DNA of 64,000 bases from Hyphomicrobiales bacterium (GTDB lineage Bacteria > Pseudomonadota > Alphaproteobacteria > Rhizobiales > Rhizobiaceae), in NCBI GenBank assembly GCA_900469615.1, contig UBYA01000008.1:62001-126000 (forward strand). The letters are read 5' to 3'. A model generated the notes under the pieces. The model saw only the letters and a list, made by a program, of their open reading frames with translations. It did no database searches and had not been told where the DNA came from. Of the stretch, positions 3,366-46,507 are shown one piece after another (positions within the stretch are counted from its first letter, which is position 1; every line of letters starts with the position of its first letter). The translations under genes were made by a program, and so were the position numbers.

Positions 3366-3442
3366 CGGAGTGTAGCGCAGTCTGGTAGCGCACCACGTTC
3401 GGGACGTGGGGGTCGAGTGTTCGAATCACTCCACTCCGACCA
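3366..3442 (+). tRNA. tRNA-Pro (anticodon CGG)
   Basis: The cloverleaf folds fully: acceptor CGGAGTG/CACTCCG, anticodon stem CCACG/CGTGG around loop TTCGGGA (anticodon CGG, reads CCG), T arm with GTTCGAATC, and an encoded CCA at 3440-3442. The 3' half from 3396 onward is identical to the second att copy at 53189. The prophage therefore integrated in this gene, and the left junction preserves a complete tRNA. Confidence 0.97.
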
Positions 3443-3449
3443 GCTGAAA
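3396..3449 (+). repeat. attL core: 54-bp direct repeat in tRNA-Pro
   Basis: The 54 bases from the anticodon loop through the CCA end and seven bases beyond are identical to 53189-53242. The repeat lies 100 bp from the tyrosine recombinase gene. These are the expected marks of an integrase attachment core. Confidence 0.96.
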
Positions 3450-3549: not shown

Positions 3550-4665
3550 TTAGAACGCGTTCGCTGCCTGCTGCTGGAAATCCGGATGCGCATGAGCATA
3601 AGTGCGCTCAAACTCCTCTGCTGTCATCCCCAGCGACGCTGCGGCCTGCTCTATCTCGACGCCAGCTTGAGCAAGCCAGGTCGCTCTTGTATGCCGCAAA
3701 ATATGCGGTGTTACGTCATCGCCGACGCATGCAAGGGAGCGGATCGATCGGAACGCCTTATGGGGCTTCGTGAGTTTTTTCCCGCCATAATGCACGGCAT
3801 AACGAAGCGCCACTTCTCGGCCCTGTTCATCCACCACGGTATCGGCCTTTTTCCAGTAGACCAGAAATCGCAGCAGGCGAGGCGGGATCTTGACTGGCGT
3901 CCGCCGCTTGTTGTGCGCCACGCGTTCACCGTCAGCTCTGCGATAAATTACGCCGCGCTCGAGATCTATGTGACCTCCGGTGGTGTTGGGCATCCATTGC
4001 AGGTTCAGGATCGCCGAAAGCCGCGTGCCGGTATACAGGCCGACCATGAGCAGGCGCGTGAGGTGCGGATATCGCCAGCCGGTCCTTTTCCATGCGATGG
4101 GTTCACGCGAAGCTATGTCGCAAGAGATCGGCACCCAGCCGAGCGAGACGAGCAGAAGCTTTGCGATCTCCCTGCGGGTAAGCCAGGCCTGCCGTGGCAT
4201 GCCCTTCTTGGGCAGAGTGATCTTCGGAACCATGTCGAGCGTGTGTTCGGCGTGGTAGTGATTGATGGCTGCGCGAAGTGTTTCCAGGTCGCGGCGCGCA
4301 CCTCCCAGATTGCCACGATCAGAGGCGTAGTCGCGGCAAGCTTGCCCCTTGATCTCGGTCAGGAACATTTCACCGAAAAAATCGCCGATGCGTTCCAGCA
4401 TGGCGATTGTCTCTCGCGGCCGGGCTGTGTCGGGTGCCTTTTCCCTGGAGTAGACTAAGACGACATCGTCTATCGTGACTTCGGCCGACCGACTGCTCCG
4501 CTTCGGGCGGTATTGGCTGCTGATGTAGTCGGCAAGCTTTCCTTGAGCTTCCTCAACTGCATCTTCGCGGCAATCCGTGGGGATACGCTTGCTTCCGTCC
4601 TTGATGAACCAGGTGCCGGTATCTGGTCTGAGCCAGAGCCGGGCTGGTCGTTTCTTTTGAGGCAT
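3550..4665 (-). CDS. int: Tyrosine recombinase (phage integrase)
   Basis: This 371-aa site-specific recombinase would catalyse integration at, and excision from, the tRNA-Pro site 100 bp away. The C-terminal catalytic domain shows Arg215 (YTGTRLSAI), His321-x-x-Arg324 (HILRHTRATW) and the likely nucleophile Tyr356 (ERTYAHAHPD). The N-terminal 150 residues hold the core-binding region. The gene ends a long minus-strand operon and its 5' end overlaps the putative excisionase gene by nearly 200 bp. Its start at 4665 (MPQKKRPARL) is followed by an arm-binding-like basic segment. Confidence 0.96.
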   Translation of the reverse strand: MPQKKRPARLWLRPDTGTWFIKDGSKRIPTDCREDAVEEAQGKLADYISSQYRPKRSSRSAEVTIDDVVLVYSREKAPDTARPRETIAMLERIGDFFGEMFLTEIKGQACRDYASDRGNLGGARRDLETLRAAINHYHAEHTLDMVPKITLPKKGMPRQAWLTRREIAKLLLVSLGWVPISCDIASREPIAWKRTGWRYPHLTRLLMVGLYTGTRLSAILNLQWMPNTTGGHIDLERGVIYRRADGERVAHNKRRTPVKIPPRLLRFLVYWKKADTVVDEQGREVALRYAVHYGGKKLTKPHKAFRSIRSLACVGDDVTPHILRHTRATWLAQAGVEIEQAAASLGMTAEEFERTYAHAHPDFQQQAANAF

Positions 4666-7115: not shown

Positions 7116-7450
7116 CGGCCGGCGTCCTGAAGGGCGGCAACGTGCGAGGTGATGCGCGGCACGGAGATCCGCTGGAACATCGTGCCGCCATGCATGCCGG
7201 CGGCTACCTCCTTGGTGAAGATGACGCGGTCGGGCTTGATCTCGACTTGGCGACGGAGATGGGGTGGGCGATAGGCTGGAAGCGTTCCTGCATCGGGCGT
7301 GCTGCGCATGGCGATGAACAGGCCGGCCTTGCGCATGACATAACGGAGCGTATCTGGATGGCAGCCGTACATTGTGGCGATCTCGATGCGGCCCATTCCG
7401 GCGTCGATATGTTGTTTCAGGACGCGGATGTCCGGAAGCTTTCTGGTCAT
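7109..7450 (-). CDS. HTH-containing phage protein
   Basis: The protein has 113 residues. An HTH of resolvase/homeodomain-like appearance lies at residues about 8-40 (VLKQHIDAGMGRIEIATMYG..PDTLRYVMRK), and the basic C-terminal half has no recognised domain. The start at 7450 is fixed by AGGAG seven bases upstream and an ATGA overlap with the DUF5131 gene. It is probably a small early regulator. Confidence 0.62.
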   Translation of the reverse strand: MTRKLPDIRVLKQHIDAGMGRIEIATMYGCHPDTLRYVMRKAGLFIAMRSTPDAGTLPAYRPPHLRRQVEIKPDRVIFTKEVAAGMHGGTMFQRISVPRITSHVAALQDAGRC

Positions 7451-8766
7451 TGACATGCTCCTTGGAAATGCTTTGGGAGGGGCGGAAAACCATTGTGCTC
7501 GACGCCATCGAGCAGCCGGCCGGCGACGGACTTGGCGACGCGGTGCATGGCGTACGGCCTCGTGAGATCGATGGAGCTGGGTTTGTGGCGCTTGCCGTCG
7601 ATATCGATCCAATAGGCGTCGTTGCGCGCCATGTTGTGATCGAGATGGCCGTTGCCTTCACTGGCGATCTGCCAGTTGCCCCACTGCTTGAATAGGAACG
7701 GCACGCCGGTCGCTGCGCATTGGTCGCGAAGCGATCTTGCCCAGTCCGGATGCATCGGCCTGGCGTTCGGTCCACTTTCACCGCCCGCAACAATCCAATT
7801 GATCCTTGGAGCCCGGCTTTGATAGGTTCCTGCAGAGACGCAATGGACTTCGCCAGCATCAGTGATAACGCGACCGATGTTATTCCATGCAGGAACGAAC
7901 CTGCCATCGATCAAGGGCTCGCCACGTCGAAAAGACCGATATCGACCAAGGGTACCTATCGGCGGCTGTCCGTTCTCTATAGCGCCGCGCATCCAGGCGT
8001 TCGGCCCGCGCCCCCACTGAGGGTTCCAGAACGATTCTATGTCTGTTTGGATTTGCGCTGGCACCCAGCTTGGCCAGACAAAGTCCGACCAGCTGCGTAC
8101 CGGTTGTTTGCATCTCCAGGCATCAGGCAAGAAGGCCCGAAGATCGACGACGCCGAGAAGAGGCTCGCCGCTAATCCATCGGACGGCCGCCGGGGTATCC
8201 ATGAGGATCGGGATGCGTTCGTCTGCGCGTCTCTGATCTTCCACGGAAACTCCGAGCCATAGTTGCGGCCAGAAGCCGGCATCTCGGGGATCGGAGATCG
8301 GGATATCGCCGAGATAAGGGCGCTCTGCTCGTAGGGGTCCAGCAGCATTTAGGATGCGGCCATACGCCTGAGGGTCGCGCAGATAATCACGCATGCGCTC
8401 CGGTCGCTTGGTCAGCACCTGAAAGATATGTTGCGGGCTGAGCGCGATCACGGCGAAGATCTGATCGAGCTGCTCATCGGTCACGCCATCGGCAAAGAGG
8501 TCGCCATGGGCGACTACGAAGATCATGCGCGGACGTTTCCAGCGCAGCGGCTGGTCGAGCCATTCGCGATTGAAGCGGACATCGCCGGTCCAGGCCGGGC
8601 CGGCCTTGCTATCCTTCGTCAGGCCGGCGCGGCTCGGAAGATTGCGCAGGCGCGTGCCGGCGAGGCGCATGGCGTAGCAGTTTGTGCAGCCGGGAGAGAC
8701 GATCTGGCAACCGGTGACGATGTTCCAGGTGGCGTCGGTCCATTCGATCTTGGTCTGATCAGCCAT
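7447..8766 (-). CDS. Phage Gp37/Gp68-type protein (DUF5131)
   Basis: The 439-aa protein matches the phage Gp37/Gp68 or DUF5131 family by its opening ADQTKIEWTDATWNIVTGC, the cysteine cluster CQIVSPGCTNCYA, FNREWLDQPLRWKRPR, FQVLTKRPERM and the later VAGGESGPNARPMHPDW. The three clustered cysteines (CxxxxxxCxxC) suggest an Fe-S cluster in a radical-SAM-like fold, but the biochemical role of the family is not established to my knowledge. The start at 8766 has AGGTGATC upstream. Confidence 0.88.
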   Translation of the reverse strand: MADQTKIEWTDATWNIVTGCQIVSPGCTNCYAMRLAGTRLRNLPSRAGLTKDSKAGPAWTGDVRFNREWLDQPLRWKRPRMIFVVAHGDLFADGVTDEQLDQIFAVIALSPQHIFQVLTKRPERMRDYLRDPQAYGRILNAAGPLRAERPYLGDIPISDPRDAGFWPQLWLGVSVEDQRRADERIPILMDTPAAVRWISGEPLLGVVDLRAFLPDAWRCKQPVRSWSDFVWPSWVPAQIQTDIESFWNPQWGRGPNAWMRGAIENGQPPIGTLGRYRSFRRGEPLIDGRFVPAWNNIGRVITDAGEVHCVSAGTYQSRAPRINWIVAGGESGPNARPMHPDWARSLRDQCAATGVPFLFKQWGNWQIASEGNGHLDHNMARNDAYWIDIDGKRHKPSSIDLTRPYAMHRVAKSVAGRLLDGVEHNGFPPLPKHFQGACQ

Positions 8767-9007
8767 GATGATCACCTTGCTCGGCTTTGAAGCCGGCGCA
8801 GGTGTTGATGGCGAGCACGACCCACAATGCGATCCGTTCAACCCGGGCGTCTGCCATTTCGCCATTGACGTCGACGGTGATGATGGCGCGTCCGTCGGCG
8901 TCGGCGATCACGCCGACATCATCGGTCACGTTGATTGGCGGCTTGACGTCAAGGGCGGCGAGCTCGCTGACGAATTGCTCGCTGGGTGACTGGCGGGTAT
9001 CCGTCAT
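8759..9007 (-). CDS. Small hypothetical phage protein
   Basis: The 82-aa protein begins MTDTRQSPSEQFVSELA, with a middle (DDVGVIADADGRAIITVDV) that looks like paired beta strands and a helical C-terminus (IALWVVLAINTCAGF). It overlaps both neighbours by a few bases within the operon. Function unknown. Confidence 0.65.
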   Translation of the reverse strand: MTDTRQSPSEQFVSELAALDVKPPINVTDDVGVIADADGRAIITVDVNGEMADARVERIALWVVLAINTCAGFKAEQGDHHG

Positions 9008-9357
9008 CGGACAGCCTCCAAACCGATCTCAGTGCGCGCCTTCTCGGAGAGAGCGGCAATCGCTGCCCGCTTCGACGCGATGTAGGCTTCAAGGATCGGA
9101 CGGGCGAGCGGCCACGGGACATCGAACAGCCTATGGCCTGATGCTCCGTTTGGAACCCCGAGCTGCAGGCCGCCGACCTGGCGCCCGAACGCATCGCGGA
9201 TATCGGGCACCTGTTTGCGGTCCATCGTTTCCAATATCTGCGTCAACAGCGTTTCGGCCGTTTCCATATCGCGGTAGGCGAGCGCGAGATCCATCGCCGT
9301 GGATTTACTGATCGGGCCAGCATGCTGAGAAGCGCGTGTCGGGTTATTCCTGCTCAT
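9004..9357 (-). CDS. Hypothetical protein directly downstream of the DGR reverse transcriptase
   Basis: The 117-aa mainly helical protein starts MSRNNPTRASQHAG and contains MDLALAYRDMETAETLLTQI and ILEAYIASKRAAIAAL. Its ATG overlaps the reverse transcriptase stop (ATGA), so the DGR and the downstream early genes share a transcript. I do not recognise a family. A DGR-associated role is possible but only by position. Confidence 0.65.
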   Translation of the reverse strand: MSRNNPTRASQHAGPISKSTAMDLALAYRDMETAETLLTQILETMDRKQVPDIRDAFGRQVGGLQLGVPNGASGHRLFDVPWPLARPILEAYIASKRAAIAALSEKARTEIGLEAVR

Positions 9358-10358
9358 TGGATGCCTTTCGCGTGTCTTTGGTCCAAACCAAGGCTCTTCA
9401 TCAAGTTGCGGCTGTCGGCCCATTGGGCATGTCCAGTCCAGGCGGCGAGAAAGCGTTCGAGGCGATCATGCTCTCCGGCGGCGCGATAGGCCGCGATCTT
9501 GCGCTGGGCGCGGATCACGCTGTCGCGGCGCAGTAGCTTGTGGGTGGGCCAGATGCGATAGCCGACGAAATTGACGCCGCGGCTGACCGGCTGGATGCTC
9601 CATTTGGAGAAGCGCAGCCCGAGCCGTTCGCGGGACAGGTTTTCGATTGAGGCGCGGACACGGCGCAGATGGTCGGTCGAGCGGCCGAGCACGACAATAT
9701 CGTCCATGTAGCGATACCAGTAGCGCTCGCCGAGATCCTGCTGCAGGTGCCGGTCGACGACGCCGGCGTAGATGTTGGCGAAGATCTGCGAGATGAGATT
9801 GCCGATCGGCAGGCCAATGCCGGTCCGTGGCAGCATGGTTTCGATCAGGCGCAGCGTCGCCCTGCATGATATCTTCGCCTCGATCAGCCGCCAGAGGGCG
9901 GCATGCTCGATGCTGGCGAAGTAGCGCGAGAAGTCCGTCTTCAGGGCGTAAAGCGGACCGCTGTCGCGAGACAGCCGGCGCATGTCGGCCTGGACTGCGA
10001 TCGCCGCGGCATGGGTGCCCTTGCCGGGGCGGCAGGCGAAGGCGCGCGGCAGCAATGTGGCTTCGAAGATCGGGCCGATGACGGCGCAGAGGGCATGTTG
10101 GGCAATGCGATCTTCGAACGGCAATGCCGAGATCAGGCGTTCCTTCGGATCGAAGATCCGGAACTCGTACGGCGTGCCGGGCACGTAGGTCCCGTCGCGC
10201 ATGGCGCGCGCCAGATCCTGAAGATTGATGATCGAGAATTCCTTGTATTCCAGAAAGCCCGGCGTCAGGCGCTTGCCGAGCGAGGTGAGGCGAAAGGCCC
10301 GACGCATGTTCGCGTCGTCGGTAATCGGGCCGATCAGGTTGCGGTATTTCCTGGCCAT
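9354..10358 (-). CDS. DGR reverse transcriptase
   Basis: This 334-aa protein is the reverse transcriptase of a diversity-generating retroelement. It copies the template repeat RNA with adenine-specific errors. The catalytic Asp142 lies in KTDFSRYF. The motif IGNLISQ at 185-191 has the DGR/retron form (IGxxxSQ) rather than the QGxxxSP of group II intron enzymes. The active site YMDD is at 217-220 and GVNFVGYR at 261-268. There is no maturase or endonuclease domain, as expected for DGRs. ATG at 10358 (MARKYRN) is chosen because AGGAGG lies 8 bases upstream. Upstream are avd and the template repeat; downstream genes are translationally coupled. Confidence 0.97.
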   Translation of the reverse strand: MARKYRNLIGPITDDANMRRAFRLTSLGKRLTPGFLEYKEFSIINLQDLARAMRDGTYVPGTPYEFRIFDPKERLISALPFEDRIAQHALCAVIGPIFEATLLPRAFACRPGKGTHAAAIAVQADMRRLSRDSGPLYALKTDFSRYFASIEHAALWRLIEAKISCRATLRLIETMLPRTGIGLPIGNLISQIFANIYAGVVDRHLQQDLGERYWYRYMDDIVVLGRSTDHLRRVRASIENLSRERLGLRFSKWSIQPVSRGVNFVGYRIWPTHKLLRRDSVIRAQRKIAAYRAAGEHDRLERFLAAWTGHAQWADSRNLMKSLGLDQRHAKGIQ

Positions 10359-10550
10359 GGCATCATCCTCCTGATGCCGGTCGCGGGTTTCGACAGCCGT
10401 AGCGCCGCTACTCCCCGCTGTACCGGACCTTGCAATGTGTTCGCCGAAGCTGGAAAATCGGGCCGACCACCCTGCGGCCATCCTGACGATGACCGCGTCT
10501 GTGGAAGAGGACCGGCGCGGCCGTGACCGGCGCCGAGTCGAAAGCGGGTC

Positions 10551-10671
10551 GTCGCTGGCCGCGCGGAGACCGATATTGTCGTTCGAGTTCTCGGCCCAGT
10601 AGTCCAAGTTCGCGTAGCGGGAACCGGCGTTCGAGCCGTTGATCCACGAGCCGCCGAAGATGGAAGGGCGC
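10551..10671 (-). repeat. DGR template repeat (TR)
   Basis: This 121-bp segment lies between avd and the reverse transcriptase and aligns without gaps to the 3' ends of the three variable genes (11121-11241, 12097-12217, 13035-13155). In coding orientation it has 22 adenines, many in AAC codons. All internal differences from the variable repeats (10, 15 and 11) fall at these adenines. The two adenines in the last 22 bases (10551-10572 side) are unchanged in all three copies, the expected initiation-of-mutagenic-homology segment. The 192 bases between TR and the RT start (10359-10550) correspond to the spacer that DGRs need for cDNA priming. Confidence 0.97.
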
Positions 10672-10678
10672 CGCAACG

Positions 10679-11059
10679 TCATTGCCCCGACCTCCCATTG
10701 CCCTTCGCGGTCTTGATCCACTGCCCGAGCATCGCGCCGGTTTCAGCGAGGTAGCGCAGCGCCACCGCATGCTGCCTGTGCGAGATCAGCTTCAGTTTCG
10801 GATCGGCCGCGAAGCGCAACCAGAAGCGCAGCGTCGCCAGATTGGAGTCCGCTGCATAGAGCCGCGAAGCCTGCTTCGACTTCGCTGCATCATAAAGGAG
10901 GCCGACCTGATCGAAGATCAGTCCGATCAGCCGGTCGCGCAGGACGCCGTGGCGTCGCGGGCAATTCTGGATGATCGGATAGAGATAGCTCACAGCGGCC
11001 TCATATTTTTCGACGATCGCCAGATCCTTGGCGCTTACGTGTTCGTCGCGTGTCATCAT
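10679..11059 (-). CDS. avd: Accessory variability determinant (Avd)
   Basis: The 126-aa basic helical protein lies between the last variable gene and the template repeat, the usual avd position. Avd forms a barrel-like pentamer of four-helix bundles that binds the RT and the template RNA. The sequence opens with an EKYEAAVSYLYPIIQNCPR helix and continues RHGVLRDRLIGLIFDQ, typical of the family (related to 23S rRNA intervening-sequence proteins). ATG at 11059 or 11056 is likely; a TTG two codons further upstream also stays open. The stop overlaps an ATG that opens the template repeat frame. Confidence 0.9.
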   Translation of the reverse strand: MMTRDEHVSAKDLAIVEKYEAAVSYLYPIIQNCPRRHGVLRDRLIGLIFDQVGLLYDAAKSKQASRLYAADSNLATLRFWLRFAADPKLKLISHRQHAVALRYLAETGAMLGQWIKTAKGNGRSGQ

Positions 11060-11083
11060 TGGCAATCGTCAAGGGTGGTGGAC

Positions 11084-11103
11084 GTTCGCGCTTTCGCGCG
11101 AAC
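11084..11103 (-). promoter_or_regulatory. DGR target-recognition hairpin after variable gene 1
   Basis: On the coding strand a perfect 8-bp stem GTTCGCGC/GCGCGAAC encloses the loop GAAA. It begins at the last base of the stop codon of variable gene 1 and 17 bp past the variable repeat. Hairpins or cruciforms with an 8-bp stem and a GNAA-type loop at this position are needed for efficient retargeting in the Bordetella phage BPP-1 DGR. Confidence 0.88.
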
Positions 11104-12029
11104 TAAGCAGGGCGCATGTGGTCGCTGGCCGCGCGGAGACCGAGATGGCCGCCCGAGTCCACGGCCCAGTAGTCCAAGCCCGCGTAGCGGGAACCGGCGT
11201 TCGAGCCGTGGATCCACGAGCCGCCGAAGATGGAAGGGCGCGGATCATCCGGATGGCCGTCCGTGCCCCACTGCCACATCGTCCCGGTCGCGTCGAAGAG
11301 ACCGCGCTGGGTGATGAAGCGTTGCGCCTCGTCGTCTGTCATGCCGGTCCTGGTCGGTTCCTTGCTGCGCGAGCATCGCTCCTTGACGCCGTAACTCGCG
11401 GCGAAGAATTCTTCCGCTCCGAGCAGGCGCTTGCCGTGATGCGCGGCTATTTCGACAGCAGTGGCATAATCGAGCCTCTCATACCTGCCGCTGCCATCCG
11501 GCCGCATGGGCAGATCGCGGCCATCGGCGATGGTGGCTCCGTAACGGCTGGTGCCTTGCTGATGATGGTCGGTGCCCAGCAGATAGATATCGGCCCAGAA
11601 GCGGCCGTGAGCGAACTCTACCATCGCCATGCCGCGCGGATCGGTGCAGGCTGGCCGAAAGCCGATATTCCAGAGGGAGTAAGGATTGATGGCGGGTGTC
11701 GTGTCGCCGCCTGCAATTCCTTGTGCATGGCCGCCGGGTGCAAAATGAAACCCTGCGAGATATCCCGGTGACAGCGGGTTTTGCTGGCTGACATTTTCGG
11801 CGAACGGCTGTCCATCGGCGTCGATCATGACGGCATAGTCCGTGCCGGCTTCCAGCGTCCCTAGCAGAACCGGCGTATCCTCGGCAAAGCGATGGGTGGC
11901 GTCTCCGATCTCGACGATCGTGCCGGCACGAATGCTGACGCTGTCGCGATCGGCTACGATCAGGATGGGCTTGTCGACGTTCAGGGTTTCAATGCGAATG
12001 CTGCTGTTGAGTGCGGATGCTGCCGTCAT
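11103..12029 (-). CDS. DGR variable protein 1 (C-type lectin/FGE-sulfatase fold)
   Basis: The 308-aa diversified protein has an N-terminal beta-rich part (residues 1-100, RAGTIVEIGD) followed by a formylglycine-generating-enzyme-like C-type lectin domain (NPYSLWNIGF, HHGKRLLGAEEF, GLFDATGTMWQWGTDG, FGGSWIHGS). The variable repeat at 11121-11241 encodes about residues 263-302, ending GLRAASDHMRPA. Such proteins are usually ligand-binding tips of phage tails or surface receptors. ATG at 12029 has AAGGATC upstream. No signal peptide is seen, which favours a virion or cytoplasmic location. Confidence 0.94.
   Translation of the reverse strand: MTAASALNSSIRIETLNVDKPILIVADRDSVSIRAGTIVEIGDATHRFAEDTPVLLGTLEAGTDYAVMIDADGQPFAENVSQQNPLSPGYLAGFHFAPGGHAQGIAGGDTTPAINPYSLWNIGFRPACTDPRGMAMVEFAHGRFWADIYLLGTDHHQQGTSRYGATIADGRDLPMRPDGSGRYERLDYATAVEIAAHHGKRLLGAEEFFAASYGVKERCSRSKEPTRTGMTDDEAQRFITQRGLFDATGTMWQWGTDGHPDDPRPSIFGGSWIHGSNAGSRYAGLDYWAVDSGGHLGLRAASDHMRPA
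11121..11241 (-). repeat. DGR variable repeat VR1
   Basis: Against the template repeat there are 10 differences, all at template adenines (coding strand): six A to G, three A to C, one A to T. All other positions are identical. The encoded changes include the residues after FGGSW, the AGLDYW region and the VDSGGHLG segment. Confidence 0.96.
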
Positions 12030-12059
12030 GATCTTGATCCTTGATTGAGGGAGGGGGGT

Positions 12060-12079
12060 GTTTGCGCTTCCGCGCAAAC
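12060..12079 (-). promoter_or_regulatory. DGR target-recognition hairpin after variable gene 2
   Basis: The coding strand shows a perfect 8-bp stem GTTTGCGC/GCGCAAAC with loop GGAA, starting in the stop codon of variable gene 2. It matches the hairpin after variable gene 3 base for base and differs in stem sequence, but not in architecture, from the one after variable gene 1. Confidence 0.87.
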
Positions 12080-12969
12080 TAGACAGGGGCCATGTGGTCG
12101 CTGGCCGCGCGGAGACCGACACCGCCGCCCGAGTCCCCGGCCCAGCAGTCCAAGCGCGCGCAGCGGGAACCGGCGTCCGAGCCGTTGAACCACGAGCCGC
12201 CGAAGACGGAAGGGCGTGGATCATTCGGATGGCCATCCGTGCCCCAGATCCAGAGGTTGCCGGTCGCCTGCATCAATCCGAACTGGCTCGTGCGCGCCGC
12301 GTCCAGACCTGTTTTCTTCGGATGCTTGCTTGCCGATGAGCGTTCGGTAGCGCCGAAGGCGGCCGTGCGAAACTCGTCATAGGTCGGGAGGCGCTTGCCA
12401 TGGCTGGCGCAGATCTCGGTAGCCACCTTGTAGTCAAGCCGAGGCAATGAAGAGCCGTGGGCGATCTCGACACCGTAGCGGCTCGTGCCCTCCTCTTTGT
12501 AATTGCTGCCAGTCAGGTAGATATCGATCCAGAAGGGTTTTCCGCCCACAAATTCGATGAGCGCCATGCCGCGCGGATCGGGGCAGGTCGGCTGAAAGCC
12601 GACGTTCCAGAAAGAATACGGGTTTATGGCCGGCGAAGAGTCTCCGCCTGCGACCCCTTCAGCGTGGCCGCCGGGCGCAAAATGAAACCCTGCGAAATAG
12701 CCTTCGACCGTGAGGGGATTTTCTGCGCTGACATTTTCGGCGACGGGCTGACCGTTCGCATCGATCCTGACCGCATAGTCCTTGCCTGGTTCGACGCCGC
12801 CCATTGTCACGGGTGTGTCGTCGGCGAAGCGATAGACTGCGTCGCCGATCTCGACGATCGTGCCGGCGCGGATGCTGGCATTGTTGCGATCGGCGGCAAA
12901 CAGGATGGGCTTCTCGTAATTCAGGGCCTCAATGCGAATGATGCTGTTGGCTGCGGCTATTGCCGTCAT
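12079..12969 (-). CDS. DGR variable protein 2 (C-type lectin/FGE-sulfatase fold)
   Basis: The 296-aa protein is a paralogue of variable proteins 1 and 3, with the same layout: an N-terminal beta-rich module with RAGTIVEIGD, then an FGE/C-type-lectin domain (NPYSFWNVGF, GLMQATGNLWIWGTDG, FGGSWFNGS) and the variable repeat at the C-terminus. The 5' region around ATG 12969 and the spacer to the next gene are near copies of the corresponding variable gene 1 sequences, so the cassettes arose by tandem duplication. Confidence 0.94.
   Translation of the reverse strand: MTAIAAANSIIRIEALNYEKPILFAADRNNASIRAGTIVEIGDAVYRFADDTPVTMGGVEPGKDYAVRIDANGQPVAENVSAENPLTVEGYFAGFHFAPGGHAEGVAGGDSSPAINPYSFWNVGFQPTCPDPRGMALIEFVGGKPFWIDIYLTGSNYKEEGTSRYGVEIAHGSSLPRLDYKVATEICASHGKRLPTYDEFRTAAFGATERSSASKHPKKTGLDAARTSQFGLMQATGNLWIWGTDGHPNDPRPSVFGGSWFNGSDAGSRCARLDCWAGDSGGGVGLRAASDHMAPV
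12097..12217 (-). repeat. DGR variable repeat VR2
   Basis: There are fifteen internal differences from the template, all at template adenines: thirteen A to G, one A to C and one A to T on the coding strand. It is the most heavily altered copy. One further difference, at the outermost base (12217), lies at the edge of the repeat and may mark its boundary. Confidence 0.95.
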
Positions 12970-12997
12970 GATTTTGATCCTTGGTTGAGGGAGGGGT

Positions 12998-13017
12998 GTT
13001 TGCGCTTCCGCGCAAAC
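12998..13017 (-). promoter_or_regulatory. DGR target-recognition hairpin after variable gene 3
   Basis: The stem GTTTGCGC/GCGCAAAC has loop GGAA, identical to the hairpin at 12060-12079, and starts in the stop codon of variable gene 3. The flanking intergenic sequence is also nearly identical between the two sites. Confidence 0.87.
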
Positions 13018-13889
13018 TAGACAGGGGCCATGTGGTCGCTGGCCGCGCGGAGACCGAAAAAGTCGTACGAGTTCTCGGCCCAGCAGCCCAAGTCCGCGTA
13101 GCGGGAACCGGCGCACGAGCCGCTGAGCCACGAGCCGCCGAAGATGGAAGGGCGCGGATCCTCGTCGTCTCCATCGGTGCCCCAGATCCAGAGATTGCCG
13201 GTTGCCTGCATCAATCCGAACTTGCTGGTGCGCGCCGCATCCAGTCCCGTTTTATTCGGGTCACCATCGGCGGACGAGTGTTCCGTTACGCCAAAGGCGG
13301 CGGAGCGGAATTCGCCATAGGTCAGCAGGCGCTTGCCGTGGATTGACACGATATCGGAGGCGGTCTGGTAATCGAGACGGGGAAGCGACCAGCCGTCGGC
13401 AATCTCGACGCCATATCGGCTTGTGCCCTGGTCCTTGTGATCGACGCCGGTCAGATAGATATCGACCCAGAAGCGATGACCGTCCTTGGCCTCGACGAGC
13501 GCCATGCCGCGCGGGTCCGGGCAGATGGGGCGAAAGTCCAGATCCCAGAGCGAATAGGGATTGATCGCCGGCGTCGCGTCTCCGCCATTGCGGTCCGCCG
13601 CACATCCGCCGGGGGCGAAGTGGAAGCCCGCCACGAAGGGCGATGTCAGCGGATTTGCTGCGACCGGCGTAGCATACGGTTTGCCGCCCATATCGATCAG
13701 GACGGCATAGTCGGCCCCGACGATCTGTTGGCTGATGCCGACCGGCGTCTCGGCCGCAAAGACGTGTGACTGTTCGCCGACCTTGATCGTCGTGCCGGCG
13801 CGGATCGCGATCGCGTCGCCCTTGGTCGCGACGAGAATGGCGGACGCGAGATCCGGCCGTTTGATGCTGATGCCTGTTGTTGAGGTCAT
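13017..13889 (-). CDS. DGR variable protein 3 (C-type lectin/FGE-sulfatase fold)
   Basis: This 290-aa protein is the first variable gene in transcription order. It shares the two-part layout of the others but its N-terminal module is more divergent (ISIKRPDLASAILVATKGD). The lectin-like domain has NPYSLWDLDF, GLMQATGNLWIWGTDG and FGGSWLSGS; the variable repeat encodes ...WAENSYDFFGLRAASDH. ATG at 13889 has AGGAACAGG upstream. Because the N-terminal modules differ, the three proteins may attach the same binding fold to different partners. Confidence 0.94.
   Translation of the reverse strand: MTSTTGISIKRPDLASAILVATKGDAIAIRAGTTIKVGEQSHVFAAETPVGISQQIVGADYAVLIDMGGKPYATPVAANPLTSPFVAGFHFAPGGCAADRNGGDATPAINPYSLWDLDFRPICPDPRGMALVEAKDGHRFWVDIYLTGVDHKDQGTSRYGVEIADGWSLPRLDYQTASDIVSIHGKRLLTYGEFRSAAFGVTEHSSADGDPNKTGLDAARTSKFGLMQATGNLWIWGTDGDDEDPRPSIFGGSWLSGSCAGSRYADLGCWAENSYDFFGLRAASDHMAPV
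13035..13155 (-). repeat. DGR variable repeat VR3
   Basis: There are eleven differences from the template, all at template adenines: five A to T, five A to G, one A to C on the coding strand. The substitution spectrum differs from VR2, consistent with independent mutagenic events. Confidence 0.96.
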
Positions 13890-17258: not shown

Positions 17259-17906
17259 TCACATGTCTATTACAGATCTTCTCACGCGGCCAATGACATT
17301 GATGGCTCCCTCGAAAGTCGGGGCATCGATCTTTTTATAGGAAGCCGGCTGAAAAGGTGGGTACTCGTCAGATCGGTAGCGCTTATAAGTGGTATTCCCG
17401 GCTTCATCGGTAACGACATAGCAGGCATTGTGCACCAGCCGCTTATCCCGCCGATTGACGAAGATAATAGATTCTGGCGGGGATATCTTATTCATTGAGT
17501 CGCCTACGACGCGAAGAGCGATCCATTCTCCATCTGGCAAATCTAGTGCCGGTATAGTCTGAAAATCTCCGAAGTCTGTCACGGGCTGTTGTTCGGACAG
17601 CATGCCTGCGCTAACCCATGAGATAAGGGGTACATCAACGGCGACGACCGGATCGGCATCGACGTCTTCTGGAGCGCCGATTCCGAAATAAAGCCACTGA
17701 AGGGAAACCTTATACGCTTTGGCATATTTCTTTGCATCAACCAATCCGAAGCCATTTCTTCCGGATTCGTGTGCTTTGTAATTGTTGACATTCCATTTGA
17801 ATTTGCCGGAAGCGGACTTCACTCCGCCGAACCCGGCATTTTTTCGCGCTTGCTGAAGCCGCGCGGCCCTTGCTGCACGCTCAAACTGTTCATCTTCTTT
17901 GATCAT
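17259..17906 (-). CDS. CI/LexA-like prophage repressor (S24 family)
   Basis: This 215-aa repressor has an N-terminal DNA-binding half and a C-terminal S24 self-cleavage domain: Ala100-Gly101 in SWVSAGM is the likely scissile bond, Ser137 (VVGDSM) and Lys175 (TTYKRY) the catalytic dyad. It should hold the lysogenic state and be cleaved on RecA activation. A 15-bp operator lies directly against its start codon, implying autoregulation. It is convergent with the exonuclease gene and divergent from the Cro-like gene. Confidence 0.92.
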   Translation of the reverse strand: MIKEDEQFERAARAARLQQARKNAGFGGVKSASGKFKWNVNNYKAHESGRNGFGLVDAKKYAKAYKVSLQWLYFGIGAPEDVDADPVVAVDVPLISWVSAGMLSEQQPVTDFGDFQTIPALDLPDGEWIALRVVGDSMNKISPPESIIFVNRRDKRLVHNACYVVTDEAGNTTYKRYRSDEYPPFQPASYKKIDAPTFEGAINVIGRVRRSVIDM

Positions 17907-32882: not shown

Positions 32883-33416
32883 TCAAGGGGTATGGGTAGA
32901 CTTGCCTCCATCAAATCCAGATTGATGCCGATCGGCTCTCGCCTCGTGGCAGGTTCGCCGACGAGGGAGGATGCGGAAGCGGAGCGCCATCAGCGTCTCG
33001 ACGGGAGCATGGTTGCGAAGAGCGGAGGCATAAAGCTGGTTTTGCGTTTTTTGCAGCTGATCGCCCTGAAGGCCGGCAACCTTGAGGGAGTTTGCCATTC
33101 GTGTGGAGCTATCGATCAATGACTGAAAGCCCTTGGCAGACCCAATGAGCGCGAAGAAACGGGCATAGACCGCCATGACATCGATGCCCGCGCGGCTCAC
33201 GTCCCGAGAAGCGGTCCCGATCTTGCGCATGGAGGCCGCCGCATTGTCTCCGCTCTTGGTGAAAGCAGCGTCTATCTTGGCACCAAGCGCGGCAGTATTC
33301 TGCTCGATCTTTTTGAAGGTTTCGGCCATCGCCGCCTCCAACCGCTTGTTGCTCCGACGAAGTGTGGCAACGTCCGTGCTGATGCTAAGTACAATGTCAT
33401 CCGTATTGTCAGTCAT
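32883..33416 (-). pseudogene. Truncated tail tape-measure protein
   Basis: The first about 140 residues look like the start of a tape-measure protein (LRRSNKRLEAAMAETFKKIEQ, VYARFFALIGSAKGFQSLID, MANSLKVAGLQGDQLQKTQ, ASALRNHAPVETLMAL). The remaining 35 residues are arginine-rich and unlike the family, and the frame ends at 177 codons where several hundred are normal. The gene is cut, most likely by the rearrangement that ends the late module here. Confidence 0.75.
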
Positions 33417-36354: not shown

Positions 36355-36689
36355 CACGAACCCGAGCAATCCACAACGCGCCAGACTCGATAGGGAGCCA
36401 GCAAGGCCCTGACGCCCTGCGGCAGGACCGCATCGCGCTGCGCCGCCGCGTCGGCGTCGCTGTTTTCGTACATGGCGGCGGTCAGCAGCAGGATCGCCAC
36501 GGTGATCGCCGGCGTGACGGCGATGCCGTCGACGGTGGCCGGCATGTCGCCGGCCGCCACCAATTCCCTGTCGATGTATTCGGCGACGATCGTCTCCGCG
36601 GCCGCCTGATAGGCTGCGATGATGGTATCGTCGTCCGCGAAATCGACGCGAAGATGCTGCTTGACGAGGGCAATATCCAGAAGAGTCAT
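36354..36689 (-). CDS. Head-tail connector protein (gp6-like)
   Basis: The 111-aa helical protein has MTLLDIALVKQHLRVDFADDD, IIAAYQAAAETIVAEYI and ITVAILLLTAAMYEN, the HK97 gp6-type connector signature. Start at 36689, coupled to the glycosyltransferase gene. Confidence 0.85.
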   Translation of the reverse strand: MTLLDIALVKQHLRVDFADDDTIIAAYQAAAETIVAEYIDRELVAAGDMPATVDGIAVTPAITVAILLLTAAMYENSDADAAAQRDAVLPQGVRALLAPYRVWRVVDCSGS

Positions 36690-37291
36690 GCGCAATCCTC
36701 CAGGCTGGCGAGCCGCCACGCGCGCCGGACTTCCGTTCTCGCCTGCCCGTCCCGATGCTTCTCGACGCTCGGGCCATCATCATGGTCGACCAGGGAACGG
36801 ACCGGATAGATCACCGCCCGGCGTCCCACCTGTCGCCACGCATCCCCGACCGCATAGTCGGCCGGTCGGTTCATCGGCATGGCGGCCAGGAGCGCGACTA
36901 CCTTGCCGGCAGGTGGCGAATAACAAACGCCGTGGAGAAGCTGCGGCAACGCGATATAGCTCAATTGCATCTCGTCGGCGTTGCGCAGCATATGGGCGAT
37001 CGTCCGCTGCCATTGAGGCGGCCGTCCGGTTCCGAGGTAAAGGCTCAGGAGGTCTTCCGGAAAACGATCAAGCCACCAACCGGCCATCGGCAGAAAGCTG
37101 GCGATGGGAAGCGCATCGTCTTCCATGACGATGCAGCGGTCATGTTGCCCGGCGCACCATTGCAGGGCTTGCCGATGCGCCCGCAAGGCGCCGAGGCCCG
37201 TCTCGTCCATGATCAGATGAGCCGATAGACCCGCTGCCAATAGCTCGGCCTGCCTGCGGCGCGCGTAATGGCCGATGACGACGATCTTCAT
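36686..37291 (-). CDS. Glycosyltransferase-like protein (GT25-type)
   Basis: The 201-aa protein starts MKIVVIGHYARRRQAELL. CIVMEDDALP (the acidic EDD motif of LPS-type GT25 enzymes), DRFPEDLLSLYLGTG and DYAVGDAWRQVGRRAVIYPV follow. It likely transfers a sugar in the cytoplasm. Its place within the head-tail gene run is odd and is discussed among the findings. Confidence 0.72.
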   Translation of the reverse strand: MKIVVIGHYARRRQAELLAAGLSAHLIMDETGLGALRAHRQALQWCAGQHDRCIVMEDDALPIASFLPMAGWWLDRFPEDLLSLYLGTGRPPQWQRTIAHMLRNADEMQLSYIALPQLLHGVCYSPPAGKVVALLAAMPMNRPADYAVGDAWRQVGRRAVIYPVRSLVDHDDGPSVEKHRDGQARTEVRRAWRLASLEDCA

Positions 37292-37297
37292 GATCAA

Positions 37298-37591
37298 TCA
37301 GGCGGCAATGTGCTTCACAGCCCACATGACTGCTTCTTCGATCCGCTCGGCAGCAATGACCAGTTCGCGGTCAATCGTGCCGATCGCCATCGAAATGCCG
37401 TCGACGTTCTCTCCAAGCGGCTGCGTGGGCGTGCGCAGCCCGTCGATGAGGTCAAGGAACTCCTGCCCCTTGTCCTTTACGGCCTGCATGTTGGCCTTCT
37501 CCTCTTCGGACAGAATGCGATACTTATGGCGCAGCGAATTGTTCACCGTCCGACCATCGCAAGCGCTATCGACATAATGAGTGTCTGCCAT
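37298..37591 (-). CDS. Acb2/Tad1-like small helical protein
   Basis: The 97-aa protein MADTHYVDSACDG has the conserved-looking segments HKYRILSEEEKANMQAVKDK, GQEFLDLIDGL and RIEEAVMWAVKHIA. These resemble the small Acb2/Tad1 hairpin-domain proteins of phages, some of which bind and sequester cyclic nucleotide signals of CBASS or Thoeris defence. AGGAGAATGATT precedes ATG 37591. The call rests on motif memory alone. Confidence 0.55.
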   Translation of the reverse strand: MADTHYVDSACDGRTVNNSLRHKYRILSEEEKANMQAVKDKGQEFLDLIDGLRTPTQPLGENVDGISMAIGTIDRELVIAAERIEEAVMWAVKHIAA

Positions 37592-37593
37592 AA

Positions 37594-39672
37594 TCATTCT
37601 CCTGCCTTGGGGCGATATTTCCGTTTCCATGCCGTGTATCGGGCATCGTTCTTGAACTTGCGAACACCATACTTCTCTTCGAAGCGCCAGACTTGCGCCC
37701 ACGTCAGCGCTCCGTCGTCGCTGCCATCTGCATGGGTTATCTTGCCGATCGTCCTCGACGTCAGGTGACTGACCTTCGATGCTGGAACCAGCATCGGATG
37801 AACGCCGGCCGCCTTCAGCTGTTCGATGACGCTGTCGTCGGCGCACCAGAAGCGGAAATCCTCGTCCAGGCCGCCGATCTTCTTCCAGATGTCGCGCTTC
37901 ATCATGAAGCACCAGCCGGAAAAGTGGCGGCCGTTGATGACGCCGGTTTCGTTCTTCGCTATCCCTGATTGCCGCCGATCGTCTGGATTCATCGGCGACA
38001 TGACCTCATGGCCCACGCCGAGCAGGGCATCCAGCCAGCCGGCGGAAAACTCAAGATCATTGTTGGCGATCATGATCCACGGCGCATTCCCCGTCGCCGC
38101 CGCTCTGTTGGCGAAGGCGTTATAGGCAAACTCGCCGCCCTCAAACATGGTGATCGCCTCGCGATGACGAACGCCTTCGACCTGCTCCACCACGACGACA
38201 TTGACCGGATGGTCGCCGGCGCCGGACCGGCAGGTATCAATGGTATGCTGCGTCATCTTGCGCCTGACCTCATCAGACGCTTTCGACAGGATGACGATAT
38301 CGACGACGGGCGGACGCGCGCGCCGCGCTATGACGCCCTGAAACCGGTCGATGAGCTGCGTTTCGGTGGTCGCACTGCTGTAGTCGTAATGGTAAAGCAC
38401 GCGGTCGATCGCATGCTCCGTCTTCAGCAGCGGCCGAAGCTCGGCGGCATAGACGCTATCCTCACCACACAGGACGGAGGGAAACGGCGTTCGCAGCGCC
38501 AGCCTGCGTTTCACCGCGCAGATATGGTTCGGCAGCCGATGATATTCTCCGCCGACATTCTCATCCTTGGCATATTTCAGCGCGTATCGGCAGATCTTCG
38601 CCGGGCCGCCATCGATGCGTACCTTGACCTGGAACGTGAGCACGTCCGCGCCCGAGCCGGTCGCATTCAGGAGCGCGGCGATGTAGTCGGGCTCGATCCG
38701 ATCGTCATCGTCGACAAAGGCGACGTATTCGCCCTTGGCCATCCGCACCATCTCGTTGCGTTTGTCGCCAAGGGTCATCGACCGGGTATCCGTCAGCATC
38801 AGGATCTCGACGCGAAGTTTGTCCGCTTGGGAAAGCGCTTCGTACTGGCCGTAGATCTGCGCCTGCATCTTCTGCGCCAGAGTGTTCCAGCGCGCGTGAA
38901 CCGATGGAATCAGGATGGACAGCATCATCCTGTTTGCGTCCCGCATCGGGCGACGGCGATACTCGACATATTCCGCGCTGTTCCGCTTCTGCTCCGCCAG
39001 ATGCGGGCTAGCTTTGCGCCGCGTCGCCTCCGGGACGGAAGACTGAACATCCCCGACTTCGTCCGATGCCTGGAACAGGCCCGTGGACGTCGGCACATCC
39101 TGGTAGCGGCAGGTGGTGAAGCCGGCATTGTGGATCCGGTCCGACCAGCTTTCGTGCTCGAAGCCCCATACGCCGAAGGCCGGGTCCATGCCGCCGACGC
39201 GATCGACGACCCGGCGCTCGACATAGAGAATGCAGCCTTTCGGCCGCGTGTAGCCGACGACATCATCGTCCCGGTAAAGCTGCGCACCGCCCCAGATGTA
39301 CATCAGATGCGGCTGCGGCGACCGCACATAGGGCTGCCACCAATCGGCGGTCACGGGCCAGGTATCGTCATCGAAAAGAAACAGGTGCTCGCACCCGGCA
39401 TCCATCAAGGCTTCGATACAGGCATTCTTCGACAGGGCAATGCCCTTCGCCTCGTCATGCCGCAGCAGCCGCACCCATTCGGGTGCAGTCGCCGCGGGAT
39501 CGGAACCGTCATCGATGACGACGAAAACCGCGCCGTCCGGCAGATACCTGCGGTGATGATCCAGCGCCTGCTTCAGCATGGCGGAGCGATTGTTGGCCGT
39601 GACGGCAATTCCGATCCGACCGCACTGCCGGTCGGCGGATACGTAGGGCACGCCATCGATCAGGACTTGCAT
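37594..39672 (-). CDS. Tandem multi-domain glycosyltransferase (GT2-type)
   Basis: The 692-aa protein has three GT-A-like segments. Residues 1-230 have IGIAVTANNRSAMLKQAL, FVVIDDGSDP and LFLFDDDTWP. Residues about 245-450 have LSILIPSVHARWNTLAQKM and GEYVAFVDDDDRIEPDYI. Residues about 455-690 have IVILSKASDEVR, NVVVVEQVEG, WIMIANNDLEFSAGW and GWCFMMKRDIWKKIGGLDE. It lies directly after the capsid gene in transcription order, so capsid or tail glycosylation is one possibility. The three domains may build a short oligosaccharide. Confidence 0.85.
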   Translation of the reverse strand: MQVLIDGVPYVSADRQCGRIGIAVTANNRSAMLKQALDHHRRYLPDGAVFVVIDDGSDPAATAPEWVRLLRHDEAKGIALSKNACIEALMDAGCEHLFLFDDDTWPVTADWWQPYVRSPQPHLMYIWGGAQLYRDDDVVGYTRPKGCILYVERRVVDRVGGMDPAFGVWGFEHESWSDRIHNAGFTTCRYQDVPTSTGLFQASDEVGDVQSSVPEATRRKASPHLAEQKRNSAEYVEYRRRPMRDANRMMLSILIPSVHARWNTLAQKMQAQIYGQYEALSQADKLRVEILMLTDTRSMTLGDKRNEMVRMAKGEYVAFVDDDDRIEPDYIAALLNATGSGADVLTFQVKVRIDGGPAKICRYALKYAKDENVGGEYHRLPNHICAVKRRLALRTPFPSVLCGEDSVYAAELRPLLKTEHAIDRVLYHYDYSSATTETQLIDRFQGVIARRARPPVVDIVILSKASDEVRRKMTQHTIDTCRSGAGDHPVNVVVVEQVEGVRHREAITMFEGGEFAYNAFANRAAATGNAPWIMIANNDLEFSAGWLDALLGVGHEVMSPMNPDDRRQSGIAKNETGVINGRHFSGWCFMMKRDIWKKIGGLDEDFRFWCADDSVIEQLKAAGVHPMLVPASKVSHLTSRTIGKITHADGSDDGALTWAQVWRFEEKYGVRKFKNDARYTAWKRKYRPKAGE

Positions 39673-45888: not shown

Positions 45889-46308
45889 TCAGTCGCGGAA
45901 GCGCGACGCCCGCTCCTGCTTCTGCTTCAGCTTATCGTGGCAGGGCTTGCACAGGCATTGGAGGTTGTTCTCATCCCAGAACAGCGCTTCATCGCCATGA
46001 TGCGGGATCTTGTGGTCGGCGACGAGCTGCGACGTATCGGCCTCGATACGGCCGCATCCTCTCATCTGGCAAGTGAAGAGGTCACGCAACAACACGGACA
46101 TGCGCAGCTTCTGCCAGCGCGAGGTCTTGTACCAGGCGCGCCATGGCTGCACGCGGTCGCGTTGGCGACGACGCTCTACGGGCGTGCCGCCCTGCAGCAA
46201 AAGGAGCTGGGCGCATCGACCGGTCAGCTCGTGACCTTTCGGCACGGACCAATTGCGGTTCAATAATCGAAAGGCGTGATCAATGGGCAGCCTGATCGAC
46301 CAGCCCAT
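45889..46308 (-). CDS. HNH endonuclease
   Basis: The 139-aa protein has the phage packaging-type HNH pattern: WYKTSRWQKLRMSVLLRD, CQMRGCGRIEADTSQLVADHKIPHH (His-Asp-His region) and NLQCLCKPCHDKL. HNH proteins next to terminases assist DNA cleavage during packaging in HK97-like phages. The start is uncertain (ATG 46308 with GAGG, or GTG 46245). Confidence 0.85.
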   Translation of the reverse strand: MGWSIRLPIDHAFRLLNRNWSVPKGHELTGRCAQLLLLQGGTPVERRRQRDRVQPWRAWYKTSRWQKLRMSVLLRDLFTCQMRGCGRIEADTSQLVADHKIPHHGDEALFWDENNLQCLCKPCHDKLKQKQERASRFRD

Positions 46309-46507
46309 CCTCGACCTCGATTTTCTTGCGTGCCCGAAGGCTTCTTACGATGTTATCGGCGCTGCTCTTGATGGCGGCAGAAACAGTGTCGGCGAAAGTC
46401 AGTCCATCGAGCTCAGCGGCGGCGGTATCATCACCGCCTCCCTGGAAGACTGCAAGATCGTCAGCAAGGAACAGATGGCCTACCGCAGCCAAAACGCTCG
46501 ACAGCAT
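46280..46507 (-). CDS. Small hypothetical phage protein
   Basis: The 75-aa product begins MLSSVLAAVGHLFLADDLAV and ends in a helix (FADTVSAAIKSSADNIVRSL). It overlaps the HNH frame by 29 bp. The upstream sequence beyond 46507 looks unrelated, so the gene may have lost its own 5' part or promoter in a rearrangement. Confidence 0.45.
   Translation of the reverse strand: MLSSVLAAVGHLFLADDLAVFQGGGDDTAAAELDGLTFADTVSAAIKSSADNIVRSLRARKKIEVEDGLVDQAAH

What the first reader, a model, noticed from the sequence alone, without database searches (positions are those of the whole stretch)
9354..13889. Complete diversity-generating retroelement with three tandem variable genes in a rhizobial prophage
The sequence shows RT (YMDD, IGNLISQ), avd, one template repeat and three C-type-lectin/FGE-type genes, each ending in a 121-bp variable repeat. 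Within these repeats all 36 internal differences from the template (10, 15 and 11) are at template adenines on the coding strand, and none of the other roughly 98 internal positions differs in any copy. This is the signature of DGR retrohoming and shows that the element has been active on all three targets. One template feeding three adjacent targets is less common than a single target.
Basis: partly seen in the sequence, partly recalled or inferred. Interest (0 to 1): 0.95.

Follow-up and report, generated by a model that had tools for sequence, protein, structure and literature searches.

The report
Phage mutator with a translated template
A dormant virus in a Rhizobium-type bacterium carries a mutation machine: three genes for predicted host-binding proteins end in copies of its single template that differ from it at adenines only, and the template itself lies in an open reading frame that runs on into the gene for the machine's copying enzyme, so ribosomes likely read the template too.

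Summary
One 121-bp template repeat (TR) and three variable repeats (VRs) differ at 36 internal positions, all template adenines. RT, Avd, DGR RNA and a hairpin behind each VR are present, and the targets are BPP-1 Mtd-type proteins: a BPP-1-type DGR in a tRNA-Pro prophage. Multi-target DGRs are known. (1) The middle target is a chimera of its neighbours, as unequal crossing-over in a two-target array would produce. (2) An ATG overlapping avd's stop opens a frame through TR and spacer RNA into RT. Of 36 clade loci (window included), 32 have a stop-free frame from a junction ATG into RT, 3 end in a TGA overlapping the RT start codon, one stops early; the start overlaps the avd stop in 29. Spacer length changes keep phase in 10 of 12 independent pairs, a control stretch in 4 of 13. 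Of 28 fresh loci 22 passed a strict rule, 27 a relaxed one. The spacer peptide is not conserved, so ribosome passage is the likely point. Translation is predicted, not shown.

The parts
9354..10358 (-). DGR reverse transcriptase from its conventional start (334 aa)
   Evidence: Pfam RVT_1 1.3e-18, phrog_1423 3.8e-111; BPP-1 RT chain 8ub7_A E 1.2e-112
9354..10682 (-). Extended open frame: ATG overlapping the avd stop, through TR and spacer, into RT (442 aa, no stop)
   Evidence: conserved in relatives
10376..10504 (-). Spacer (DGR RNA that in BPP-1 recruits RT-Avd and primes the cDNA)
   Evidence: Rfam RF03022 Phage_DGR 66.9 bits, gathering 50; role in BPP-1 from a passage of PMC12875486
10551..10671 (-). 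Template repeat (TR)
10679..11059 (-). avd; its TGA stop (10681-10679) overlaps the ATG at 10682-10680
   Evidence: Pfam bAvd 1.2e-26; Bbp7 4dwl E 3.3e-27
11103..12029 (-). Target 1 (Mtd-type, 308 aa)
   Evidence: Mtd second domain 2.1e-09, phrog_11262 tail 5.6e-75
11121..11241 (-). VR1: 10 differences, all at template A
11084..11103 (-). Hairpin after VR1: 8-bp stem, GAAA loop
12079..12969 (-). Target 2 (Mtd-type, 296 aa), chimera: front half target-1-like, back half distal-target-like
   Evidence: AlphaFold2 model matches Mtd 1yu0
12097..12217 (-). VR2: 15 internal differences, all at template A, plus one G>A at the outermost base
12060..12079 (-). Hairpin after VR2: 8-bp stem, GGAA loop
13017..13889 (-). 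Target 3 (Mtd-type, 290 aa)
   Evidence: Mtd second domain 7.9e-07, phrog_11262 3.2e-71; PDB Mtd E 4e-43
13035..13155 (-). VR3: 11 differences, all at template A
12998..13017 (-). Hairpin after VR3: 8-bp stem, GGAA loop
3396..3449 (.). Left att repeat at the end of tRNA-Pro (copy at 53189-53242)
3550..4665 (-). Prophage integrase
   Evidence: Phage_integrase 8.1e-09, phrog_1 8.1e-33
17259..17906 (-). CI-like repressor (S24 peptidase)

Best explanation
This is a BPP-1-type diversity-generating retroelement whose one template has likely overwritten the ends of three Mtd-type genes (they differ from it at adenines only), and whose template and spacer RNA lie in an open frame that starts on avd's stop codon and runs into the reverse transcriptase, so that the same RNA is likely both translated and used as template. 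Shown by sequence: the parts, the A-only differences, the tracking of each locus's own template by its VRs, the junction start codon, the phase kept over variable spacer lengths, and the chimeric middle target. Inferred: a ribosome finishing avd restarts at the overlapping ATG, passes through TR and spacer and delivers RT, either as a form with a 108-residue N-terminal extension or by restarting at the RT start codon. RT and Avd would then bind the folded spacer of the same or a sister RNA and prime a cDNA whose errors at A are pasted into the VR in front of each hairpin. Ribosome passage and RT-Avd binding would compete for the spacer, which would tie RT supply to Avd and set when an RNA serves as messenger or as template. 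The third target likely arose by unequal crossing-over between two tandem targets. The products are likely receptor-binding tail proteins.
For: A-only differences. In 36 clade loci (window included) 61 VRs carry 709 differences at A and 19 at other template positions (only VRs with at most 2 non-A mismatches were counted, so 19 is a floor). 519 of 521 VR copies examined carry their own template's private non-A state (first 90 positions). Families and folds. Frame: a junction ATG is in phase with the VR frame of the TR in 36 of 36 and with RT in 33 of 36, stop-free in 32; the start overlaps the avd stop in 29 of 36 and follows it by 2 nt in 4; the three out-of-phase loci L053, L059, L060 end in a TGA overlapping the RT ATG. 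Length changes: 10 of 12 independent pairs are multiples of 3 (P 5e-4), fewest changes 20-21 in length but 3 in phase; control stretch 4 of 13, 20 versus 12. Shuffled substitutions would give 8.6 (SD 1.9) stops over 16 hand-picked pairs; 1 was seen. A letter-shuffled spacer stays open to RT in 0.24 of cases on average. Fresh loci: 22 of 28 strict, 27 of 28 relaxed. Chimera: 257 informative sites, 0 of 5000 shuffles as extreme; front half sister to target 1 (99/93), the opposite groupings rejected at p 0.006 and 8e-8.
Against: The spacer shows no codon bias (pN/pS 0.89 in phase, 0.89 and 1.22 in the other phases; 24 loci), so no peptide is being conserved. RT's usual start has a Shine-Dalgarno-like site in 30 of 36, so RT may simply start there. 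The G-rich stretch before avd's stop also exists in BPP-1, which has no ATG there, and may be the motif that ends reverse transcription. L046 has a stop 153 nt before RT. In L015, L024 and L052 the avd frame did not stop before the TR, so the junction is not of this form there. AlphaFold2 gives the extension pLDDT about 25 and models the extended protein poorly overall. Of 15 more distant fresh loci with a located avd stop only 5 fit, and BPP-1 does not. The back half of target 2 is not placed firmly in one group (p 0.034).
Confidence: 0.74

Rival explanations
1. The DGR is real but the continuous frame is incidental: the TR must be open because the VR is coding, the spacer is open because the DNA is GC-rich and the RNA is conserved, and RT starts only at its own ATG.
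For: No codon bias in the spacer; Shine-Dalgarno-like sites at the RT start in 30 of 36; conserved RNA family in the window and in 7 of 7 loci searched.
Against: Length changes keep phase in the spacer but not in the control stretch beside it; stops are fewer than shuffles give; the out-of-phase loci end on the RT start codon; the pattern repeats in fresh loci; judged by eye in 29 printed loci, the RNA motif is read in another phase in L017, L022, L024, L052 and L056 while the total stays in phase.
Confidence: 0.17
2. The TR-spacer frame encodes a functional protein or an N-terminal domain of RT, and that product is what is selected.
For: Open frame of about 100-130 codons before RT in 32 of 36, and a separate small ORF of 104-110 codons in L053, L059 and L060.
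Against: pN/pS 0.89 in the spacer; the same RNA stretch is read in different phases in different loci; the extension is predicted without structure (a poor model overall).
Confidence: 0.08
3. The element is a relic: retrohoming happened in the past but no longer does in this prophage.
For: No second isolate to compare; the prophage tail module looks cut short, so its targets may have no virion to act in.
Against: RT, avd and all three targets are intact with the YMDD box; the RNA family and three hairpins are intact; no internal non-A change has accumulated in any of the three VRs.
Confidence: 0.15
4. The third target arose by import of a gene from another phage, not by crossing-over within the array.
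For: The back half of target 2 sits nearest to distal targets of BK602 and the window without firm placement.
Against: Its front half is sister to target 1 of the same prophage, and the stretches behind targets 3 and 2 agree at 45 of 47 positions, as duplication predicts, against 27 of 41-43 with the stretch behind target 1.
Confidence: 0.25

Closest known systems
Bordetella phage BPP-1 DGR (mtd-avd-TR-brt, AY029185.2)
   Same: Gene order target-avd-TR-RT; Mtd target (36% identity over 97% of target 3), Avd, RT (8ub7_A), spacer RNA RF03022 at 104.7 bits, hairpin with GRNA loop after the VR (PMC3240598, abstract and passages seen)
   Different: One target, not three; Mtd has an N-terminal stretch that is missing here (target 3 matches from residue 63 of 381); avd ends in TAA with no start codon at the junction, and the TR is not in its VR phase relative to brt
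DGRs with several targets (24 in Table 2 of PMC3521204: 19 with two, 2 with three, 3 with four VRs)
   Same: One TR, paralogous targets, A exchanges in each
   Different: The clade here has Mtd-type targets, and the third gene is a traceable chimera
[quoted passage not shown]
   Same: TR inside a frame that an annotator would call RT
   Different: The sections read record annotation overlap only, with no test of frame, junctions or translation; they suggest that RT and TR RNAs are transcribed separately
Prophage of Rhizobium sp. BK602 (L012, same att site)
   Same: Integrase 78%, DUF5131 protein 76% and RT 87% identical, ATGA junction and fused frame
   Different: Two targets, different TR end matched by its own VRs, other terminase and capsid families, no match to the window's repressor

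Membership tests
Diversity-generating retroelement | DGR-type reverse transcriptase with YMDD and the SQ motif (IGNLISQ) | tested here: met
   the SQ motif as a DGR mark is from a passage of PMC3521204
Diversity-generating retroelement | TR/VR pair with differences confined to template adenines | tested here: met
   36 of 36 internal differences
Diversity-generating retroelement | Accessory protein Avd | tested here: met
   bAvd 1.2e-26; Bbp7/Avd chains
Diversity-generating retroelement | C-type-lectin-fold target with VR at its C-terminus | tested here: met
   Target 2 model against Mtd 1yu0 E 3.3e-24, though the VR loop itself is modelled with pLDDT under 50; VR at the C-terminal end of all three
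Diversity-generating retroelement | Demonstrated mutagenic retrohoming | not testable with these tools
   needs culture or several isolates
BPP-1-type phage DGR | Spacer RNA between TR and RT | tested here: met
   RF03022 66.9 bits
BPP-1-type phage DGR | Hairpin with GRNA tetraloop just after each VR | tested here: met
   3 of 3 in the window; none of this form in the 61 nt behind the TR. In the clade a perfect stem of 7 bp or more was found behind 36 of 61 VRs, 35 of them with a GRNA loop; imperfect stems were not looked for
BPP-1 Mtd family | Mtd second domain plus lectin domain | tested here: met
BPP-1 Mtd family | N-terminal stretch of Mtd (about residues 1-62) | tested here: not met
   alignment of target 3 begins at Mtd residue 63; second and lectin domains are present, so 'shortened relative of Mtd' is the claim
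BPP-1 Mtd family | Receptor binding and tropism switching | not testable with these tools
   inferred from family
Translationally coupled genes | Start codon overlapping the upstream stop, downstream frame open to the next gene | tested here: met
   window; clade: 29 of 36 overlap, 4 more within 2 nt; fresh loci
Translationally coupled genes | Downstream translation depends on upstream translation | not testable with these tools
   needs reporter assays

The most novel reading that the evidence does not exclude
In this clade of Mtd-type DGRs the mutagenic template is itself translated: avd, template plus priming spacer, and RT form one translationally coupled chain, so every template RNA is first a messenger for the enzyme that copies it, and ribosome traffic decides when it becomes a template.
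Probability: 0.65. Interest if true: 0.75.

Novelty: new variant of a known kind. Interest (0 to 1): 0.62.

Why it matters
DGRs are natural targeted mutators, and how a template RNA would be shared between translation and reverse transcription has, as far as my searches show, not been asked. A template that must stay readable by ribosomes puts a second constraint on TR and spacer and offers a simple way to tie RT output to Avd and to time retrohoming. The two-junction pattern makes this testable with ordinary reporters and ribosome profiling. The chimeric third target shows how a multi-target array can grow, while the shared template keeps the variable ends of long-diverged paralogs the same at non-adenine positions.

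Tried and rejected
A separate functional peptide from the TR-spacer frame was considered and rejected on pN/pS 0.89 and on the changing phase of the RNA motif. Folding of the extended RT gave a poor model (mean pLDDT 44.8), so it decides nothing. A second control, target-2 stop to target-1 GGSW, was uninformative because it includes a gene body (6 of 9 pairs multiples of 3, 13 length changes versus 5 phase changes). The claim that TGA at the RT start marks only out-of-phase loci (3 of 3 versus 2 of 33) weakened with fresh loci (3 of 4 versus 6 of 18; combined Fisher P 4.5e-4). Remote copies of the TR elsewhere in the genome: none. Same-species strains: none found; of 150 genomes searched, own included, 3 had an RT match: the own genome, the sister G002 and the distant G105. 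The halves of target 2 were cut at a conserved motif near the break found, after seeing it, with 34 of 61 targets used.

Literature: nine searches of the held library. No paper there holds both 'diversity-generating retroelement' and 'translational coupling'; of three papers listed for 'TR overlaps' or 'RT ORF', only PMC3521204 holds 'TR overlaps'. Seen: sections 13 and 14 of PMC3521204 plus passages; passages of PMC8144416, PMC12875486, PMC6642488, PMC10743442 and PMC3240598; all others in listings only. Subscription papers were not available.

Rows dropped: of 78 sources (window and 77 loci; the six loci repeat contigs) 69 gave a TR in the expected place; 56 remained after near-duplicates were removed; 37 rows form the clade on the RT tree, of which L058 was left out of the counts for lack of the TR front, leaving 36. 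Six of the 36 loci hold under 9 kb upstream of the TR, so VR numbers are floors. Of 48 fresh non-redundant loci 32 had RT identity of at least 62% to the RT of the window, L059 or L060; 28 of these had an avd stop before RT, 3 an avd frame that runs on (one, L178, ends on the RT start), 1 no avd found.
Full report
What is there. On the minus strand between 9354 and 13889 lie, in the order of transcription, three target genes (13889-13017, 12969-12079, 12029-11103), avd (11059-10679), the template repeat (10671-10551), a spacer RNA (10504-10376) and a reverse transcriptase (10358-9354). I re-aligned the four repeats by script. The three variable repeats differ from the template at 10, 15 and 11 internal positions, all 36 at template adenines (24 A>G, 7 A>T, 5 A>C). 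One more difference, G>A, is at the outermost base of 12097-12217. The chance of such placement is about 1e-31. The assembly has no further copy.

Families. RT matches RVT_1 and phrog_1423 and, in the PDB, the BPP-1 RT chain at E 1.2e-112. Avd matches bAvd and Bbp7. All three targets carry the Mtd second domain and match the tail family phrog_11262. Target 3 matches crystal structures of BPP-1 Mtd at 4e-43 from residue 63 of 381 onward, so the front stretch of Mtd is missing. An AlphaFold2 model of target 2 (mean pLDDT 81, under 50 in the variable loop) has Mtd as its five best structural matches. The spacer matches Rfam RF03022. Each VR is followed, at the stop codon, by an 8-bp stem with a GAAA or GGAA loop; the 61 nt behind the TR hold none of this form. 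In the clade a perfect stem of 7 bp or more was found behind 36 of 61 VRs. In BPP-1 such a hairpin is needed for efficient homing and its loop fits GRNA (PMC3240598, abstract and passages seen).

Setting. A 54-bp repeat of the tRNA-Pro end at 3396-3449 and 53189-53242, an integrase beside it, a CI-like repressor, terminase, portal, protease and capsid genes mark a prophage. The BK602 prophage sits at the same site and shares integrase, DUF5131 gene and DGR, but has other terminase and capsid families and no match to the window's repressor.

Was it active on all three targets? In 36 loci of the clade (window included), 61 VRs carry 709 differences at template A and 19 elsewhere (VRs with more than 2 non-A mismatches were not counted, so 19 is a floor). 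Where a locus's template has a private non-A letter, 519 of 521 VR copies examined carry the same letter. Paralogous targets in one locus are 45-65% identical outside the VR, yet in 25 of 26 within-locus comparisons they differ at 0 or 1 of about 70 non-A template positions; the exception, L039, differs at 10. So each template has kept overwriting its own targets. Whether it still does so in this strain is not shown.

Number and origin of the targets. Of 36 loci, 12 have one VR, 23 two and only the window three; six loci hold under 9 kb upstream, so these are floors. Target 2 is a chimera. Of 257 informative sites, the first part is 98 to 27 like target 1 and the rest 91 to 41 like target 3, and none of 5000 shuffles is as extreme. 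The front half is sister to target 1 (99/93), and grouping it with distal targets is rejected (p 0.006). The back half cannot be grouped with target 1 (p 8e-8) and lies nearest to BK602 target 2 and window target 3, though its exact group is not settled (p 0.034). The stretches behind targets 3 and 2 agree at 45 of 47 positions. Unequal crossing-over in a two-target array predicts this: old distal gene, hybrid with proximal front and distal back, old proximal gene.

The template lies in an open frame with RT. In the window an ATG at 10682-10680 overlaps avd's TGA stop and opens a 442-codon frame through TR (in the VR phase), spacer and RT. I tested this in the 36 clade loci. A junction ATG is in phase with the VR frame of the TR in 36 of 36, and with RT in 33, of which 32 have no stop; its distance to RT runs from 309 to 390 nt, with 15 values, in those 33. 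The start codon overlaps the avd stop in 29 of 36 and follows it by 2 nt in 4; in L015, L024 and L052 the avd frame did not stop before the TR. The three out-of-phase loci (L053, L059, L060) have the frame open through TR and spacer and end in a TGA that overlaps the RT start codon. One locus, L046, has a stop 153 nt short of RT.

Is that more than relatedness and GC content? On the RT tree I took pairs on separate branches whose spacer lengths differ: 10 of 12 differ by a multiple of 3 (P 5e-4), and the tree needs 20-21 changes of length but only 3 of phase. The stretch from the target-1 stop to the avd end in the same loci gives 4 of 13 and 20 versus 12. Random placement of the observed substitutions would give 8.6 (SD 1.9) stops over 16 pairs picked by hand; one was seen. 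A letter-shuffled spacer stays open to RT in 24% of cases on average. By eye, in five of 29 loci printed the conserved RNA stretch is read in another phase, yet the total remains in phase with RT.

Fresh test. Four more scans of viral contigs gave 48 non-redundant loci outside the first set. With the rule written before the result (start codon at -1 or +2 of the avd stop, then either in phase with RT or ending within -10 to +25 nt of its start), 22 of 28 evaluable close relatives fit: 18 fused, 4 ending at the RT start (three at +1, one at +5). One ends 13 nt before RT. The other five have an ATG 5-8 nt behind the avd stop; four of these are fused and one ends on the RT start codon, so 27 of 28 fit under the relaxed rule. 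Of 15 more distant fresh loci with a located avd stop 5 fit, and BPP-1 does not. The feature is thus a mark of this clade; L020 (Pusillimonas) and L071 (viral contig), outside it, also have an ATGA junction fused to RT although their TR is read in another phase.

What it does not show. The spacer has no synonymous bias (pN/pS 0.89, against 0.25 in TR and 0.22 in RT, 24 loci), so no peptide is conserved. Both the junction ATG and the RT start have Shine-Dalgarno-like sites upstream (34 and 30 of 36 against 20% of 720 random places), so RT may be made in two forms. The G-rich stretch before the avd stop is also present in BPP-1 without an ATG and may be the signal that ends reverse transcription mentioned in PMC12875486 (figure-legend passage). 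The extension is predicted without structure in a poor model.

Likely working. Shown: parts, A-only differences, frame, junctions, chimera. Inferred: ribosomes pass from avd through the template into RT; RT and Avd bind the folded spacer when ribosomes are absent; cDNA with errors at A is placed into three VRs in front of their hairpins; three Mtd-like tail proteins vary independently. What is selected is probably unbroken ribosome passage, since a stop in the spacer would cut RT supply, rather than the extension itself.

Compared with what is known. Multi-target DGRs are known (24 with 2-4 VRs in Table 2 of PMC3521204), and the same paper lists a class in which TR overlaps the end of an annotated RT ORF, without testing frame or translation in the sections read. 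A search for DGR with translational coupling found no paper in the held library. I therefore rate the array as an ordinary though rare member, and the translated-template arrangement as a new variant.

Noticed in passing
window 32883-33416: The prophage's tail module looks cut short: a 177-aa tape-measure-like fragment is followed by oppositely oriented replication genes; among the ORFs scanned the only further tail hits are a tail protein (46283-46690) and a tail fibre (47705-48535) on the other strand. The virion may be defective or its tail genes unusual.
   Followed up: partly
L130, L157, L178 (upstream of RT): In three fresh loci the avd frame has no stop well before RT; in L178 it ends on the RT start codon and in L130 it runs on to the end of RT, as if avd, template and RT were one frame.
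   Followed up: partly
L019:3223-3346: A second VR about 6 kb upstream of its TR, with no perfect hairpin found behind its stop codon.
   Followed up: no
L008-L011 versus window 2601-53250: Prophages at the same tRNA-Pro site share integrase, DUF5131 gene, DGR and pieces of the replication region but have other terminase and capsid families, so the receptor-binding array travels with the integrase arm.
   Followed up: partly
window 7447-8769: DUF5131 protein next to the DGR, 76% identical to one beside the DGR of BK602.
   Followed up: no
window 36686-39672: Two glycosyltransferase-like genes between capsid and tail genes.
   Followed up: no
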